Below are positions 19,115 to 22,863 of a stretch of DNA of 64,000 nt, one piece after another. This DNA comes from Thiosulfatihalobacter marinus (GTDB taxonomy: Bacteria > Pseudomonadota > Alphaproteobacteria > Rhodobacterales > Rhodobacteraceae), in contig NZ_JAECRZ010000001.1 in NCBI RefSeq assembly GCF_016019955.1, forward strand, positions 248,001 to 312,000, written 5' to 3'. How positions within the stretch are numbered: position 1 is the first letter of the stretch; every line of letters starts with the position of its first letter. Both the position numbers and the translations under genes were made by a program. Below the pieces are notes generated by a model. That model did not search any database. It had not been told where the DNA came from and was given only the letters and a program-made list of their open reading frames with translations.

Positions 19115-20368
19115 ATGGCCACCGATCTGTTCAATTCCTTCATGTCCGGTCCCGACGAAAAGGGCCGGTTCGGCATTTTTGGCGGGCGGTTTGTCAGCGA
19201 AACGCTGATGCCGCTGATCCTGGATCTGGAAGCGGAATACGAGAAGGCCAAGGACGATCCCGCGTTCTGGGCCGAGATGGACGATTTGTGGAAGCATTAC
19301 GTGGGCCGCCCGAGCCCGCTGTATTTCGCGCCGCGTCTGACGCAAAGCCTGGGCGGGGCGAGGATCTATCTCAAGCGGGACGAGCTGAACCATACGGGCG
19401 CGCACAAGATCAACAATGTGCTGGGTCAGATCATCCTGGCGCGGCGCATGGGAAAGACCCGGATCATTGCCGAGACCGGGGCGGGCCAGCATGGGGTGGC
19501 GACGGCCACTGTTTGTGCCAAGTTCGGGCTGAAATGCGTGGTTTACATGGGCGCGCATGACGTGCAGCGCCAGGCGCCCAACGTGTTCCGGATGCGCCTT
19601 TTGGGGGCCGAGGTGATCCCGGTGACGAGCGGGCGGGGGACGCTGAAGGACGCGATGAATGACGCGCTGCGCGACTGGGTCACGAATGTGCGCGACACGT
19701 TCTATTGCATCGGCACCGTGGCCGGGCCGCATCCCTATCCGGCGATGGTGCGCGATTTCCAGTCGATCATCGGCAAGGAAGTGCGCTGGCAGCTGGCCGA
19801 GCAGGAGGGTGAGGGCCGTCTGCCCGATACGGTGATTGCCGCGATCGGCGGCGGGTCCAACGCGATGGGGCTGTTTTTCCCGTTCCTGGATGACAAGGAG
19901 GTCAACATCATTGGCGTCGAGGCCGGCGGCAAGGGTGTGGACGAAAAGGTGGAGCATTGCGCCAGCCTGACCGGCGGGCGCCCCGGTGTGCTGCATGGCA
20001 ACCGCACCTACCTGTTGCAGGACGATGACGGGCAGATTCTTGAAGGCTATTCGATTTCGGCAGGTCTGGACTATCCGGGCATCGGGCCGGAGCATAGCTG
20101 GCTGCATGAGGTGGGACGCGCGCAGTATGTCAGCGTGACCGACAAGGAGGCGCTGGAGGCGTTTCAGTTCTGCTGTGCGCAGGAGGGAATCATTCCGGCG
20201 CTGGAGCCGAGCCATGCGCTGGCCCATGTGATGAAGATCGCGGGCGATCTGCCAAAGGACCATATCATCGTGATGAACATGTGTGGCCGGGGCGACAAGG
20301 ATGTGCAGACCGTGGCGCGCTATCTGGGGTTCGACATGAGCGATACCGAAGGGCGTGCGGCGCACTGA
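19115..20368 (+). CDS. trpB: Tryptophan synthase beta chain
   Basis: A 417-residue PLP enzyme condensing indole and serine. The PLP lysine lies in [14 protein letters not shown], the PLP phosphate loop is GGGSNAMG, and the catalytic Glu region [10 protein letters not shown] is intact. This is the standard TrpB1 type. The start at 19115 ([17 protein letters not shown]) matches family length; an upstream in-frame start at 19004 adds unrelated sequence. It forms the active complex with TrpA, encoded at 33483-34274. Confidence 0.96.
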
Positions 20369-20395: not shown

Positions 20396-20422
20396 GGGCG
20401 CCCGTAATCGGGCGCCCTTTTT
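20396..20422 (+). terminator. Intrinsic terminator after trpB
   Basis: A 9-bp perfect GC stem (20396-20404 with 20409-20417), a TAAT loop and five T. A second small hairpin (20447-20453 with 20460-20466) follows without a T tract. Confidence 0.9.
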
Positions 20423-20615
20423 GGTTTCAGGGGCTGTCCTAAACCGGGGTTTAGGCGGCTAAACCCGGGGTGCAGGCGGGGAGAATTAAACCGCAGTTCA
20501 ATGGTTCGTCCGATTTGCCCGGGTCAGTCTGGGGGCAGGCGAATACGCCGAAAACACCAGGCGGAAAACAAGAATCCCCCTGATCATCTACAGACACATG
20601 CAGCAAGGAAATCTC

Positions 20616-21137
20616 ATGACACGTATATTCCTCACTTCCACCGCCATTGTCATCGGTCTGGCATCGACCGCATTTGCCCAGGACTTTGTAACGCGCCTGG
20701 AGCGGTCCTTTGCCCGGGACGGATTTACCAAGATCGAGATCAAGCGCGGCAATGGCCAGGCCAAAGTCGAAGCCGTGCGCGACGGGATGCAGGTGGAAAC
20801 CGTTTACGATCTGGATACCGAAGAAGTGGTTTCGCATGAAGTCGGCCCGATCGGGGACGACGATGGCCGGGACGATGATGGCCATGATGACGATGATGGC
20901 CGCGATGACGATGGCCATGATGACGATGATGGCCGCGATGATGATGGTCACGACGATGATGGCCGCGATGACGATGGCCATGATGACGATGGCTATGATG
21001 ACGATGGCCATGACGATGACGGCGGCGATGACGATGGCAGCGACGATGACGGGCGCGATGACGATGGCGGTGATGATGGCGGTCGCGACAGCGATGGCGA
21101 TGGCGACAGCGATGGCGACAGCGGCGATCATGATTGA
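20616..21137 (+). CDS. Secreted PepSY-like protein with Asp-rich repeat tail
   Basis: A 173-residue protein. A signal peptide (MTRIFLTSTAIVIGLASTAFA, cleavage near residue 21) is followed by a short domain of about 60 residues that reads like a single PepSY unit: an amphipathic FARDGFTKIEIKRGNGQAKVEAV, then VYDLDTEEVVSHEV. The last 90 residues are pentapeptide-like repeats DDDG(R/H/Y/G/S), ending DSDGDGDSDGDS, which resembles calcium-binding Asp loops. Export to the periplasm or outside is likely. AAGGAA precedes the start. The next gene is a paralogue, and a membrane LuxR-type regulator follows. Confidence 0.75.
   Translation: MTRIFLTSTAIVIGLASTAFAQDFVTRLERSFARDGFTKIEIKRGNGQAKVEAVRDGMQVETVYDLDTEEVVSHEVGPIGDDDGRDDDGHDDDDGRDDDGHDDDDGRDDDGHDDDGRDDDGHDDDGYDDDGHDDDGGDDDGSDDDGRDDDGGDDGGRDSDGDGDSDGDSGDHD
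20855..21120 (+). repeat. Coding minisatellite of GATGACGATGGCC-type units
   Basis: Dozens of copies of GAY-GAY-GAY-GGC codons with a variable fifth codon encode the Asp-rich tail. Near-identical blocks such as GATGACGATGGCCATGATGA recur several times, so slippage or recombination could change tail length. Confidence 0.85.
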
Positions 21138-21271
21138 GGCCACGGCACGGATCGGCAGTTCCTGTCGGTCCGGGGCGGCATACTGCGCCTGGCGATGAAG
21201 GCGCAGCCTTTCCATGACCGGCTGGCGCCCGTATGATGCGGGGGCCAGCCAACATTTTTCGGATGGACTTT

Positions 21272-21808
21272 ATGACCAGGACAATCGGACACATTGTACG
21301 AACCGCCGTTGCGCTGGCGATGCTGGGGACCGCCGCTCTGGCGCAGAGCAGCGCGAACCCGCGGCTTGATGCGATCGTGCGGCAGTTGCAGGCGCAGGGC
21401 TATGACGACATCGCCATTGGCCGCACCTGGCTGGGACGGGTGCGTATCGAGGCCAGATCGGGAAATGCGGAGCGCGAGATCGTGGTCAACCCGCGCACCG
21501 GTGAAATCCTGCGCGACTATTGGGACGATGGGGAGGGCCGGGACGGGCAGAAGGGGGCATTTGGTGGTCTGATCGGGCGGACAAATGATCCCGATGAGTC
21601 GTCTGATGACGATGGGCAGGATGAAAGCGGAAGTGACGATGGGGGGCACGACGGCGGCGGCGACGATGGCAATGACGGCGGCGACGGGGACGGCGGCGAC
21701 GGGGACGGCGACGATGGTGGCGGCGACGATGGTGGCGGTGACGATGGCGGCGGCGACGATGGCGGCGGGGACGATGGCGGCGGGGACGATGGTGGTGACG
21801 ATGACTGA
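21272..21808 (+). CDS. Secreted PepSY-like protein with Asp/Gly-rich tail
   Basis: A 178-residue paralogue of the preceding protein. A signal peptide runs to about residue 25 (AMLGTAALAQ). The PepSY-like unit follows: LDAIVRQLQAQGYDDIAIGRTWLGRVRIEARS, then EIVVNPRTGEILRDYW. A charged linker leads to a tail of roughly 75 residues made of GGGDD and GDGD repeats. The start at 21272 follows GGATGGA; an in-frame ATG at 21263 is an alternative. Its tail lacks the His and Arg seen in the first protein. Function unknown; metal or calcium binding, or sensing for the adjacent regulator, is speculation. Confidence 0.75.
   Translation: MTRTIGHIVRTAVALAMLGTAALAQSSANPRLDAIVRQLQAQGYDDIAIGRTWLGRVRIEARSGNAEREIVVNPRTGEILRDYWDDGEGRDGQKGAFGGLIGRTNDPDESSDDDGQDESGSDDGGHDGGGDDGNDGGDGDGGDGDGDDGGGDDGGGDDGGGDDGGGDDGGGDDGGDDD
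21650..21800 (+). repeat. Coding GGC-GAC-GAT repeat tract
   Basis: Tandem 12-base units of the type GGCGGCGACGATGG encode the Gly/Asp tail. They differ in sequence from the tract in the preceding gene, so both expanded independently or diverged strongly. Confidence 0.8.
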
Positions 21809-21838
21809 ACGGTCGCGGGCTGAACCGGGGCGGCGCCG

Positions 21839-22351
21839 GTGAGACGGGCCGGTTTGCTTGGCGGGCTTGTGCTTTTGCAGGGGGTTGCGGCCTTGTTCTT
21901 TGTATCGGACATCGCGATGTCCGTGCTGGGGGTGCGCTCGACCCCGATCAGCTGGCAAACCCGGGAAATCCTTGAGATTGCCGCAGCGCTGGGGCTGGTT
22001 CTGGGCGTGGTCCTGGGGTGGCTGGCGCTGCGTCAGTCGATGGCGGGCAAGGCCCGGGCCGAAGCCAGCCTGCGCCAGGTGCAACGGGCGTTCCGGGACC
22101 ATCTGGAGGCCACGTTTCGCGACTGGGGGTTGACGCCGGCCGAACATGACGTGGCGCTTTTCTCTGTCAAGGGACTGTCAATTCAGGAGATTGCCGCCTT
22201 GCGCGATACGTCCGAGGGCACGGTCAAGGCGCAGAGCAATGCAATTTACCGCAAGGCCGGTGTCAGCGGGCGGGCGCAGCTCATGAGCCTGTTTCTGGAG
22301 GATTTGCTGGCAGAGGACGGCGCGGCGGCCTTGCAGGACCGCGCGGGCTAG
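21839..22351 (+). CDS. Membrane-anchored LuxR-type HTH regulator
   Basis: A 170-residue protein with two membrane segments (about residues 5-27 and 45-65), a short coiled linker (SMAGKARAEASLRQVQRAF) and a C-terminal GerE/LuxR-type helix-turn-helix (about 98-150: LTPAEHDVALFSVKGLSIQE, then TSEGTVKAQSNAIYRKAGVSGRAQLM). No receiver or autoinducer domain is present. It starts at GTG 30 bases after the second PepSY-like gene and is presumably cotranscribed. An inner-membrane one-component regulator controlled by the two secreted acidic proteins is possible but untested. Confidence 0.8.
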   Translation: MRRAGLLGGLVLLQGVAALFFVSDIAMSVLGVRSTPISWQTREILEIAAALGLVLGVVLGWLALRQSMAGKARAEASLRQVQRAFRDHLEATFRDWGLTPAEHDVALFSVKGLSIQEIAALRDTSEGTVKAQSNAIYRKAGVSGRAQLMSLFLEDLLAEDGAAALQDRAG

Positions 22352-22731
22352 GGGGCGGTTTTGGTGGCGTGTTGCGCCAGCACGCGCAGAGGCACGATGT
22401 CGAGCGCGCGTTGATGTGTGGCGGCAAGATCGACCTGCGGGGCGCAGCCTTCGTCATGGGCCTGGAGAAAGCGGGCGGCGCACAGGCACCAGTGATCCCC
22501 CGGTTGCAGCCCGGCAAAGTTGAACTCGGGCCGGGGGGTGGACAGATCGTTGCCGACATATTTGGAAAAGGCGAGAAATTCGGCCGTCATCACGGCGCAG
22601 ACGGTGTGGCTGCCCTGATCTTCGGGGCAGGTGTTGCAATGTCCGTCGCGGAAGAACCCGGTGACGGGATCGCCGGAGCAGGGGGCGAGATTGGTGCCCA
22701 GAACGTTGAAGCCGGGGTCTTTGTGGATCAT
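22348..22731 (-). CDS. DUF2237 family protein
   Basis: A 127-residue cytosolic protein matching the DUF2237 family: NVLGTNLAPCSGDPVTGFFRDGHCNT, then DQGSHTVCAVMTAEFLAFSKYVGNDLSTPRPEF, and PGDHWCLCAARF. Conserved Cys and His residues suggest possible metal binding, but no activity is known. MIHKDPGFNVLG at 22731 is the likely start; a longer form to 22806 adds nonconserved sequence. The 3' end overlaps the convergent LuxR-type gene by 4 bases. Confidence 0.85.
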   Translation of the reverse strand: MIHKDPGFNVLGTNLAPCSGDPVTGFFRDGHCNTCPEDQGSHTVCAVMTAEFLAFSKYVGNDLSTPRPEFNFAGLQPGDHWCLCAARFLQAHDEGCAPQVDLAATHQRALDIVPLRVLAQHATKTAP

Positions 22732-22863
22732 GGGGGCATGTTCGCATGGCCGCGGCGCCGCGCCAAGCGGCAATAGGCGCGCGCGCCGCGTTTCGGGGCG
22801 GGCCATTGCCGGGGTTTTGCCTTGCAGTGGATGATCCGGGTTCGGGACGGTGAGAAATTCGCG

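What the first reader, a model, noticed from the sequence alone, without database searches (positions are those of the whole stretch)
20616..22351. Two secreted acidic PepSY-like proteins plus a membrane LuxR-type regulator: possible undescribed sensing module
Two tandem paralogues each carry signal peptide, one PepSY-like unit and an extreme Asp tail; the third gene is a two-segment membrane protein with a LuxR DNA-binding domain and no known sensor domain. The acidic tails look suited to bind Ca or other cations. The set could be a periplasmic ion buffer or sensor coupled to gene control.
Basis: inference. Interest (0 to 1): 0.6.

Follow-up and report, generated by a model that had tools for sequence, protein, structure and literature searches.

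The report
PepSY-linked membrane LuxR regulator module
Bacteria of the Rhodobacteraceae group carry a conserved gene set in which secreted, often strongly acidic PepSY-like proteins sit beside a membrane-anchored gene regulator, apparently a single-protein version of the PepSY-controlled two-component sensors known elsewhere.

Summary
In detail: window 20616-22351 holds two secreted Asp-tailed PepSY-like proteins and a two-helix membrane protein with a LuxR-type DNA-binding domain.
A conserved operator was found, TAAAC-N4-GTTTA, usually in an array at 0/+21/+47. The perfect site occurs once in the 4.16-Mb host genome, at this promoter, and goes with the regulator across 120 genomes (Fisher p=2e-13).
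In distant relatives the regulator family sits with PepSY plus cytochrome b561 or a ferric-reductase-like gene; in six close relatives that reductase gene has the operator. Tail and first gene vary; the second PepSY protein and the regulator's outer loop are the constant parts.
Best reading: the PepSY protein gates the membrane-bound LuxR factor through that loop, in response to envelope metal or redox state, as DbfQ gates the kinase DbfS in Vibrio. Gating, signal and cation binding are inferred. New variant of a known kind.

The parts
19115..20368 (+). trpB-like gene upstream (named by inspection); flank, not part of the module
   Evidence: a homologue lies upstream in 40 of 80 named loci
20396..20417 (+). 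intrinsic terminator-like hairpin that separates the upstream gene from the module
20440..20453 (.). operator site 1, TAAACCGGGGTTTA, perfect palindrome
   Evidence: only perfect match in the 4.16-Mb genome
20460..20473 (.). operator site 2, one TAAAC half at +20
   Evidence: offset scan, z 5.9 at +21 and 5.1 at +20 over 58 non-redundant upstream regions
20487..20500 (.). operator site 3 at +47, one mismatch
   Evidence: offset scan z 7.0 at +47
20616..21137 (+). gene 1: secreted PepSY-like protein with Asp-rich tail (tail about 20856-21134)
21272..21808 (+). gene 2: secreted PepSY-like protein with the conserved T-x-L-G-R ... R-D motif and Asp/Gly tail (tail about 21527-21805); the constant PepSY partner
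21839..22351 (+). gene 3: membrane-anchored LuxR-type regulator (TM1 about aa 7-29, external loop about 30-45, TM2 about 46-64 running into a linker helix, HTH about 98-150)
21926..21973 (+). predicted external loop of the regulator with Pro36, Trp39, Glu43
   Evidence: each identical in 69 of 69 aligned sequences (window plus 68 of the 80 named loci)

Best explanation
This is a self-contained envelope signalling unit. The regulator is held in the inner membrane by a two-helix hairpin with its LuxR DNA-binding domain in the cytoplasm (predicted). The gene-2 PepSY protein is secreted and binds the short external loop of the hairpin through its conserved basic motif, holding the regulator in one state; a change in envelope metal or redox state changes that contact and so the regulator's activity (inferred). 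The regulator acts at a TAAAC operator array in front of its own operon (site shown by conservation, binding inferred). It thereby sets the amount of its own PepSY partner and of the secreted acidic proteins, whose Asp tails probably collect cations at the envelope (inferred). In close relatives it also controls a ferric-reductase-like membrane protein (operator shown, control inferred).
For: Linkage: gene 2 ends just upstream of the regulator, same strand, in 79 of 80 named loci (L068 has only 10 nt upstream). In the host genome all three hits of the gene-2 profile (E<=0.01) lie beside its two membrane regulators. Operator: 40 of 76 upstream regions share the top 4+4 dyad against 12 and 9 for the best dyad in two shuffles; a perfect site within 1 kb upstream of gene 2 in 60 of 80 (79 loci and window); once in the host genome, where the reversed pattern occurs 4 times; array 0/+21/+47; a 47-bp pair of near sites in two PepSY-cytochrome b561-regulator operons (L022, L023) and a perfect site in a third (L019). 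In 120 family genomes 33 of 60 sites lie 0.65-2.0 kb upstream of a regulator; 41 of 51 genomes with a main-class regulator have a site against 10 of 69 others. Interface: Pro36, Trp39, Glu43 in 69 of 69; the close homologue without PepSY in reach (L017) has lost Pro36, Trp39, Arg42, Glu43 and Glu46. Gene 2 has invariant Leu39, Thr52, Leu54, Gly55, Arg56, Ala61, Arg68, Arg81, Asp82 in 68 of 68; gene 1 has none in 50. Iron/redox link: cytochrome b561 (12), ferric-reductase-like (1) or diheme cytochrome c (2) genes beside 15 of 43 regulators; operator at -125 of the ferric-reductase-like gene in the 6 closest orthologues. Precedent: DbfQ, a periplasmic PepSY protein, binds the kinase DbfS at 30 nM, with basic DbfQ residues facing acidic DbfS residues (PMC12714742, section 8 and passages).
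Against: No binding, expression or mutant data. 20 of 52 main-class regulators have no TAAACYNNRGTTTA site within 3.5 kb upstream; one of these (G034:C3) has a perfect looser site, and G378 and G363 have under 0.7 kb of contig upstream. Of 22 upstream regions of other regulator types and of odd cases, only 6 had a site better than 5% of shuffles; the host's second PepSY-regulator pair (L130), L113, L133, L118 and the PepSY-regulator-ferric reductase operon L020 had none (two regions were under 90 nt). Six of 43 regulators have neither PepSY nor an electron-transfer gene nearby. Three divergent PepSY-linked regulators depart from the loop motif: L113 second copy (Pro36 and Trp39 changed), L132 and L133 (Pro36 changed). 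The ferric-reductase link was found through the operator; of 13 homologues 6 have the site and 7 do not, including G002, which has the regulator. 25 of 60 family sites lie elsewhere with no orthologous target in common. Genes 1 and 2 miss the Pfam PepSY cut-offs and Foldseek gave no match at E<=1e-3.
Confidence: 0.55

Rival explanations
1. The membrane hairpin is itself the sensor (quinone, redox, pH or cation), and the PepSY proteins are only products under its control, working as periplasmic metal or electron-transfer helpers.
For: Asp24 in TM1 (66 of 69) and Glu46 at the start of TM2 (68 of 69) are conserved, and an acidic residue stands at these places in nearly all rows of the other classes, unlike the loop motif. 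Some regulators have cytochrome b561 or diheme cytochrome c but no PepSY gene in reach (L118, L121, L122, L134). PepSY_TM-type systems are tied to iron reduction (PMC8238504, passages).
Against: The loop motif goes with gene-2-type PepSY in 69 of 69 aligned loci and is lost in L017, which has no PepSY in reach (but see the three divergent exceptions). In Rhodobacteraceae the PepSY gene is kept while no heme gene was noticed among the recurrent flank genes.
Confidence: 0.26
2. The TAAAC operator belongs to another regulator (its 5-4-5 palindrome has the spacing recalled for CRP/FNR-type sites) and the membrane LuxR factor acts elsewhere.
For: The operator was assigned to the regulator only by association; LuxR-type operators recalled from other systems look different; the host's second pair has no such site.
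Against: The site is rarer where a main-class regulator is absent (10 of 69 genomes against 41 of 51; some of the 69 have weaker regulators). It precedes the PepSY-cytochrome b561-regulator operon L019, whose only parts in common with the window module, among those searched for, are PepSY and the regulator. Among flank clusters in at least 6 loci the only other DNA-binding gene noticed is an IHF-like one in 16 of 80 loci, in conserved synteny.
Confidence: 0.13
3. One reading: a periplasmic calcium or cation buffer, with the Asp tails as the sensing element.
For: Extreme Asp tails (net -48 and -33); an acidic-tailed ORF lies upstream of gene 2 in 57 of 73 loci against 7 of 231 control stretches.
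Against: Tails are weak or missing in a minority that keep PepSY and the regulator (10 of 79 under 15% D/E); the host's second pair has no acidic tail. No calcium-specific gene was noticed in the neighbourhoods examined.
Confidence: 0.12
4. The acidic proteins are envelope or extracellular structural proteins (adhesion, mineral or salt related) and the regulator only sets their amount.
For: In some loci the first gene keeps an acidic or Gly/Ser-rich tail without a detectable PepSY domain (L051, L060, L074, L085, L105). Three stray operator sites lie before other secreted low-complexity proteins (L259, L275, L279).
Against: Does not explain the constant PepSY partner nor the cytochrome and ferric-reductase links.
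Confidence: 0.07

Closest known systems
DbfQRS of Vibrio cholerae and other PepSY-two-component modules (PMC12714742)
   Same: Small secreted PepSY protein encoded upstream of a membrane signalling protein; feedback on its own operon; two PepSY genes upstream in P. aeruginosa, of which only the adjacent one is predicted to bind the sensor, like gene 2 against gene 1 here.
   Different: There a histidine kinase and response regulator; here one membrane-anchored LuxR protein and no kinase or receiver domain. That paper's neighbourhood screen used kinase and response-regulator domains, and the word LuxR does not occur in its main text.
UipA/UipRS of Microbacterium (seen only through passages of the review PMC8963506)
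   Same: PepSY protein with a negatively charged metal-binding face, near a regulatory system.
   Different: UipA has a tandem of PepSY domains and a membrane span, with a two-component system nearby; here a single PepSY-like unit, a low-complexity Asp tail and a one-component regulator.
SHP / diheme cytochrome c / cytochrome b operons with Orf1-RR-SK1 (PMC2909971, passages)
   Same: Heme electron-transfer genes beside a sensor that has a periplasmic accessory protein (Orf1); distant relatives of the present regulator sit beside diheme cytochrome c (L121, L122) and, in L122, a DUF1924 gene.
   Different: Two-component sensors there; a membrane LuxR factor here. That Orf1 is a PepSY protein was not checked.
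LIC13292 family regulators (NCBIfam NF047608)
   Same: Best named match of the regulator (63 bits, C-terminal half).
   Different: Far below the family cut-off of 200 bits; the match covers aa 78-160 only.
PepSY_TM ferrisiderophore and metal reductases (FoxB, CrpH; PMC13038864, passages)
   Same: PepSY units in periplasmic metal or redox chemistry.
   Different: PepSY fused to transmembrane heme helices; here PepSY is a free secreted protein.

Membership tests
PepSY domain proteins (PF13670/PF03413) | passes Pfam curated cut-off | tested here: not met
   gene 2: 21-23.5 bits against 24.3; gene 1: 16.9 bits with tail cut; 7 of 68 gene-2 family members reach E<=1e-3 for PepSY_2
PepSY domain proteins (PF13670/PF03413) | homology to clear PepSY members by profile comparison | tested here: met
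   A2 against A5: 97.9%, E 3.2e-13; 11 of 11 members of A5 match PepSY_2; A2 against A4: E 1.1e-19
PepSY domain proteins (PF13670/PF03413) | helix plus four-strand PepSY-type fold | tested here: inconclusive
   AlphaFold model pLDDT 89.4, helix then four strands; YpeB, YpmB, DUF2874 and vibriolysin propeptide chains at Z 5.1-6.4, but unrelated chains score as high or higher and Foldseek is not significant
LuxR/GerE-type transcription factors | GerE helix-turn-helix domain | tested here: met
   26.7 bits against 23.5; VraR DNA-binding domain is the nearest solved relative by sequence
Acyl-homoserine-lactone LuxR receptors | autoinducer-binding domain | tested here: not met
   no such domain among matches up to E 10; the N-terminal part is predicted as a two-helix membrane hairpin
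PepSY-two-component (DbfQRS-like) modules | small secreted PepSY gene just upstream of the signalling gene | tested here: met
   79 of 80 named loci, the last having 10 nt upstream
PepSY-two-component (DbfQRS-like) modules | histidine kinase and response regulator in the module | tested here: not met
   gene 3 has neither kinase nor receiver domain; none noticed among flank clusters present in at least 6 of 80 loci (by inspection)
PepSY-two-component (DbfQRS-like) modules | direct binding of PepSY protein to sensor | not testable with these tools
   complex prediction and binding assays not available
LIC13292 family (NF047608) | NCBIfam cut-off of 200 bits | tested here: not met
   63 bits
UipA | tandem PepSY domains with transmembrane anchor | tested here: not met
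   a single PepSY-like stretch followed by an Asp tail; UipA features taken from passages of a review

The most novel reading that the evidence does not exclude
A family of kinase-free envelope sensors across Alphaproteobacteria: a secreted PepSY protein gates a two-helix membrane LuxR transcription factor that binds DNA while anchored, reporting periplasmic metal or redox state and controlling, by lineage, secreted polyaspartate proteins, cytochrome b561 or a ferric reductase, through related operator arrays.
Probability: 0.48. Interest if true: 0.78.

Novelty: new variant of a known kind. Interest (0 to 1): 0.62.

Why it matters
PepSY proteins are common, yet what they do to their neighbours was shown only recently, with the kinase DbfS. 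If a PepSY protein can also gate a one-component membrane transcription factor, PepSY gating is a general way to carry envelope state to genes, and this minimal pair is easier to study than a kinase cascade. The operator gives a ready reporter for finding the signal, and the Asp-tailed proteins a natural test of polyaspartate cation binding.

Tried and rejected
Chance or frame artefact: the Asp tails leave several other frames open, but the plus frame is the one conserved with signal peptide and PepSY core in many genera.

Housekeeping neighbourhood as the function: trpB (40 of 80 loci) and a DUF2237-like gene (30 of 80; name by inspection) are conserved synteny in Rhodobacteraceae; the distant relatives read have other neighbours, so they were not taken as partners.

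Larger regulon: 15 stretches around further perfect sites in relatives were read (the sites of G013, G030, G035 and of other families were not), and all 27 family sites not upstream of a regulator. Apart from the ferric-reductase-like gene in six genomes no orthologous target recurred; two of the 27 are PepSY operons at contig ends, and three (L259, L275, L279) precede other secreted low-complexity proteins. In the host genome the one-mismatch sites listed with loci, besides 20487, fall in or near unrelated genes (one further site, C66, had no locus and was not read).

First gene always a PepSY protein: rejected. By profile it is found in 52 of 79 loci; in several others a secreted acidic or low-complexity protein without a detectable PepSY domain takes its place, and one (L047) had simply been missed.

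Structure look-ups gave little: Foldseek not significant, VIA-align Z 5.1-6.4 for PepSY-like chains against 8.4 for an unrelated Mediator chain, no solved structure by sequence for the gene-2 family at E<0.1.

Literature: no paper on a PepSY-LuxR module came up in the ten searches; of the hits only 15 of 1,533 and 8 of 461 were listed, and only open-licence PMC papers are held, so this is weak evidence. Six papers were opened (PMC8963506, PMC12004947, PMC8238504, PMC13038864, PMC12714742, PMC2909971) and seen as passages found by term, with one section read in PMC12714742; the others only in listings.

Limits of the counts: searches use TAAACYNNRGTTTA, derived from related loci, so they are not an independent discovery test. 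The tally of 43 was counted by hand from loci fetched; one search fetched 30 loci of a longer match list. L026-L031, L128, L129 and L135 were dropped as weak or DNA-binding-domain-only matches, and L112, L125, L131 as repeats. Alignments used part of what was held: A2 the window and 67 of 79 gene-2 loci, A3 the window and 68 of 80 regulators, A4 the window and 49 of 51 gene-1 domains.
Full report
WHAT IS THERE. Three plus-strand genes lie between a terminator-like hairpin after trpB (20396-20417) and a converging gene (22348-22806). Gene 1 (20616-21137) and gene 2 (21272-21808) have signal-peptide-like starts, one PepSY-like unit and Asp-rich tails of 93 residues each (54 Asp, net -48; 33 Asp plus 3 Glu, net -33). 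Gene 3 (21839-22351) has two hydrophobic helices and a LuxR/GerE domain. The gaps are 134 and 30 nt. No terminator-like site was called between the genes; one promoter-like match lies at 21209-21237. The host is in one genus group with Shimia genomes: several same-genus genomes have contigs of the same length as named Shimia contigs (inference from contig lengths).

IS THE PEPSY CALL SOUND. Pfam puts gene 2 just under its cut-off and gene 1 further below, and only 7 of 68 gene-2 relatives reach E<=1e-3 for PepSY_2. But the gene-2 profile matches clear PepSY_2 proteins from the wider regulator family (11 of 11 of these match PepSY_2), and gene 1 matches gene 2 by profile. The model of gene 2 (pLDDT 89.4) is a helix followed by four strands after the signal helix; PepSY-like solved structures appear among the second-look matches, though not above unrelated ones. 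I call it a divergent PepSY.

CONSERVATION. In 60 related genomes 34 have a regulator match at E<=1e-3, some to the DNA-binding domain only. The gene-2-type PepSY gene lies just upstream of the regulator on the same strand in 79 of 80; the last has only 10 nt upstream. Gene 1 is recognised by profile in 52 of 79. In the host genome the gene-2 profile finds three places: gene 2, gene 1 and a protein beside the host's second membrane regulator. That second pair has no acidic tail.

CORE AND ACCESSORY PARTS. Gene 2 has nine invariant residues in 68 sequences; gene 1 has none in 50. The acidic tail of gene 2 is strong in 61 of 79, intermediate in 8 and weak in 10. An acidic-tailed ORF lies upstream of gene 2 in 57 of 73 loci, against 7 of 231 control stretches. 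In several loci the first gene keeps the secreted low-complexity or acidic character without a PepSY domain. Several Natronohydrobacter and Roseibaca loci have no recognisable first gene and only a short, weakly acidic tail. So the constant unit is gene 2's PepSY domain plus the regulator.

THE OPERATOR. Upstream regions share TAAAC-N4-GTTTA: the top dyad occurs in 40 of 76 regions, against 12 and 9 for the best dyads in two shuffles. In 1.09 Mb of named loci there are 76 sites with at most one mismatch; 47 lie within 350 nt upstream of the operon start as called (44 of 79 loci); of the other 29, 24 lie 356-875 nt upstream of it, 22 of these in loci where the first gene had not been recognised. 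A perfect site lies within 1 kb upstream of gene 2 in 60 of 80 (79 loci and the window). In the host genome the perfect site occurs once, at window 20440, and 11 sites have at most one mismatch; the reversed pattern as control gives 4 and 95. Over 58 non-redundant regions further sites stand at +20/21 and +47 (z 5.9 and 7.0); the window has them at 20460 and 20487. In 120 genomes of the family 33 of 60 sites lie 0.65-2.0 kb upstream of a regulator (32 of 52 main-class regulators and one weaker); 41 of 51 genomes with a main-class regulator have a site, 10 of the 69 others, some of which have weaker regulators; two more sites lie at contig ends before PepSY genes.

THE WIDER FAMILY. In the class, 18 of 289 genomes have the regulator at E<=1e-10. 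Of 43 distinct regulator genes in fetched loci 33 have a PepSY gene near; 12 have cytochrome b561 (one of them divergent), one a ferric-reductase-like gene, two diheme cytochrome c; 6 have none of these (domain checks on examples). The order PepSY - cytochrome b561 - regulator recurs. L019 of this type has the perfect operator, and L022 and L023 have a 47-bp pair of near sites, so operator and regulator appear to travel together across different partner genes; but only 6 of the 22 regions tested there beat 5% of shuffles, and L130, L113, L133, L118 and L020 did not. In G013 a ferric-reductase-like gene starts 10 nt after the regulator stop (L020, L200). In six other genomes the related gene stands apart from the module with a perfect operator at -125; these are the six closest of 13 homologues (88-100% identity), and were first met through the operator; the other seven, including G002, which has the regulator, have no site. 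The host genome has no such gene at E<=1e-60.

HOW IT PROBABLY WORKS. The model of the regulator (pLDDT 90) has helix 2-30, a short loop and one long helix 39-96 that runs from the membrane to the DNA-binding domain. Charges favour N-in/C-in. The loop residues Pro36, Trp39 and Glu43 are invariant in the 69 PepSY-linked sequences aligned. L017, the one close homologue without a PepSY gene in reach, has lost them, although L015 and L016, of about the same distance, keep them. Three more distant PepSY-linked regulators deviate (L113 second copy at Pro36 and Trp39; L132 and L133 at Pro36), so the contact may have shifted there. I infer that gene 2 docks on this loop. In V. cholerae the periplasmic PepSY protein DbfQ binds DbfS with a Kd of 30 nM, with basic DbfQ residues against acidic DbfS residues; in P. 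aeruginosa the adjacent of two PepSY proteins is predicted to bind BqsS and the distal one not (PMC12714742; section 8 and passages read). Gene 2 and gene 1 fit that pattern. The signal is not known; the links to ferric-reductase-like and cytochrome genes, and reports that PepSY_TM-type systems take part in iron reduction (PMC8238504, passages), make metal or redox state the first candidates. Calcium is not excluded.

WHAT IS SHOWN AND WHAT IS INFERRED. Shown by computation: the genes, their conservation, the operator array and its link to the regulator, the constant and variable parts, the neighbours in relatives. Predicted: membrane topology and folds. Inferred: docking, gating, binding of the operator by gene 3, cation binding, the signal, and whether the regulator activates or represses.

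COMPARISON WITH THE KNOWN. It works like a PepSY-two-component module but is not one: the kinase and response regulator are absent. The host genome has such a classical set elsewhere (L001: response regulator and kinase named by inspection; the PepSY hit passes the Pfam cut-off), so both forms live in one genome. It is not a member of the LIC13292 family by cut-off. Ten literature searches found no description, within an open-licence library and with two listings capped.

VERDICT.

Noticed in passing
L001 (host genome C22:217306-220479): A classical PepSY - response regulator - histidine kinase set with a second, divergent PepSY-like gene and a DUF4405-like membrane gene beside it (named by inspection); the kinase segment contains RSRSLWD, the motif that PMC2909971 gives for sensor SK1.
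   Followed up: partly
L113/L131 (G286:C4:247064-248070): Two PepSY-regulator pairs stand tail to tail, one with a long Asp tail and one without.
   Followed up: no
L064, L067, L111: First and/or second secreted proteins end in a shared motif like Y(L/V)T(G/A)G followed by Asp and hydrophobic residues, after Gly/Ser-rich tails; possibly a sorting or secretion tag.
   Followed up: partly
L018 and L024 (G029, G035): The regulator gene is split into two pieces by stops or a frame change while the PepSY gene upstream remains; possible decay or sequence error.
   Followed up: no
L017 (G033:C3): Regulator homologue without PepSY in reach; a small secreted protein of another kind lies upstream, and the external loop residues are changed.
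   Followed up: partly
L071, L090, L097: An additional PepSY gene of the gene-2 type lies about 2-3 kb upstream of the regulator, with a further perfect operator site upstream of it.
   Followed up: no
L262 (G350:C56:21424): A perfect operator lies 45 nt upstream of a 644-aa ORF that looks like a multicopper oxidase (by inspection).
   Followed up: no
L259, L275, L279 (G352, G371, G414): Stray operator sites precede small or large secreted proteins of low complexity (Gly/Ser-rich, Ser/Asp-rich, acidic), a hint of a wider class of targets.
   Followed up: no
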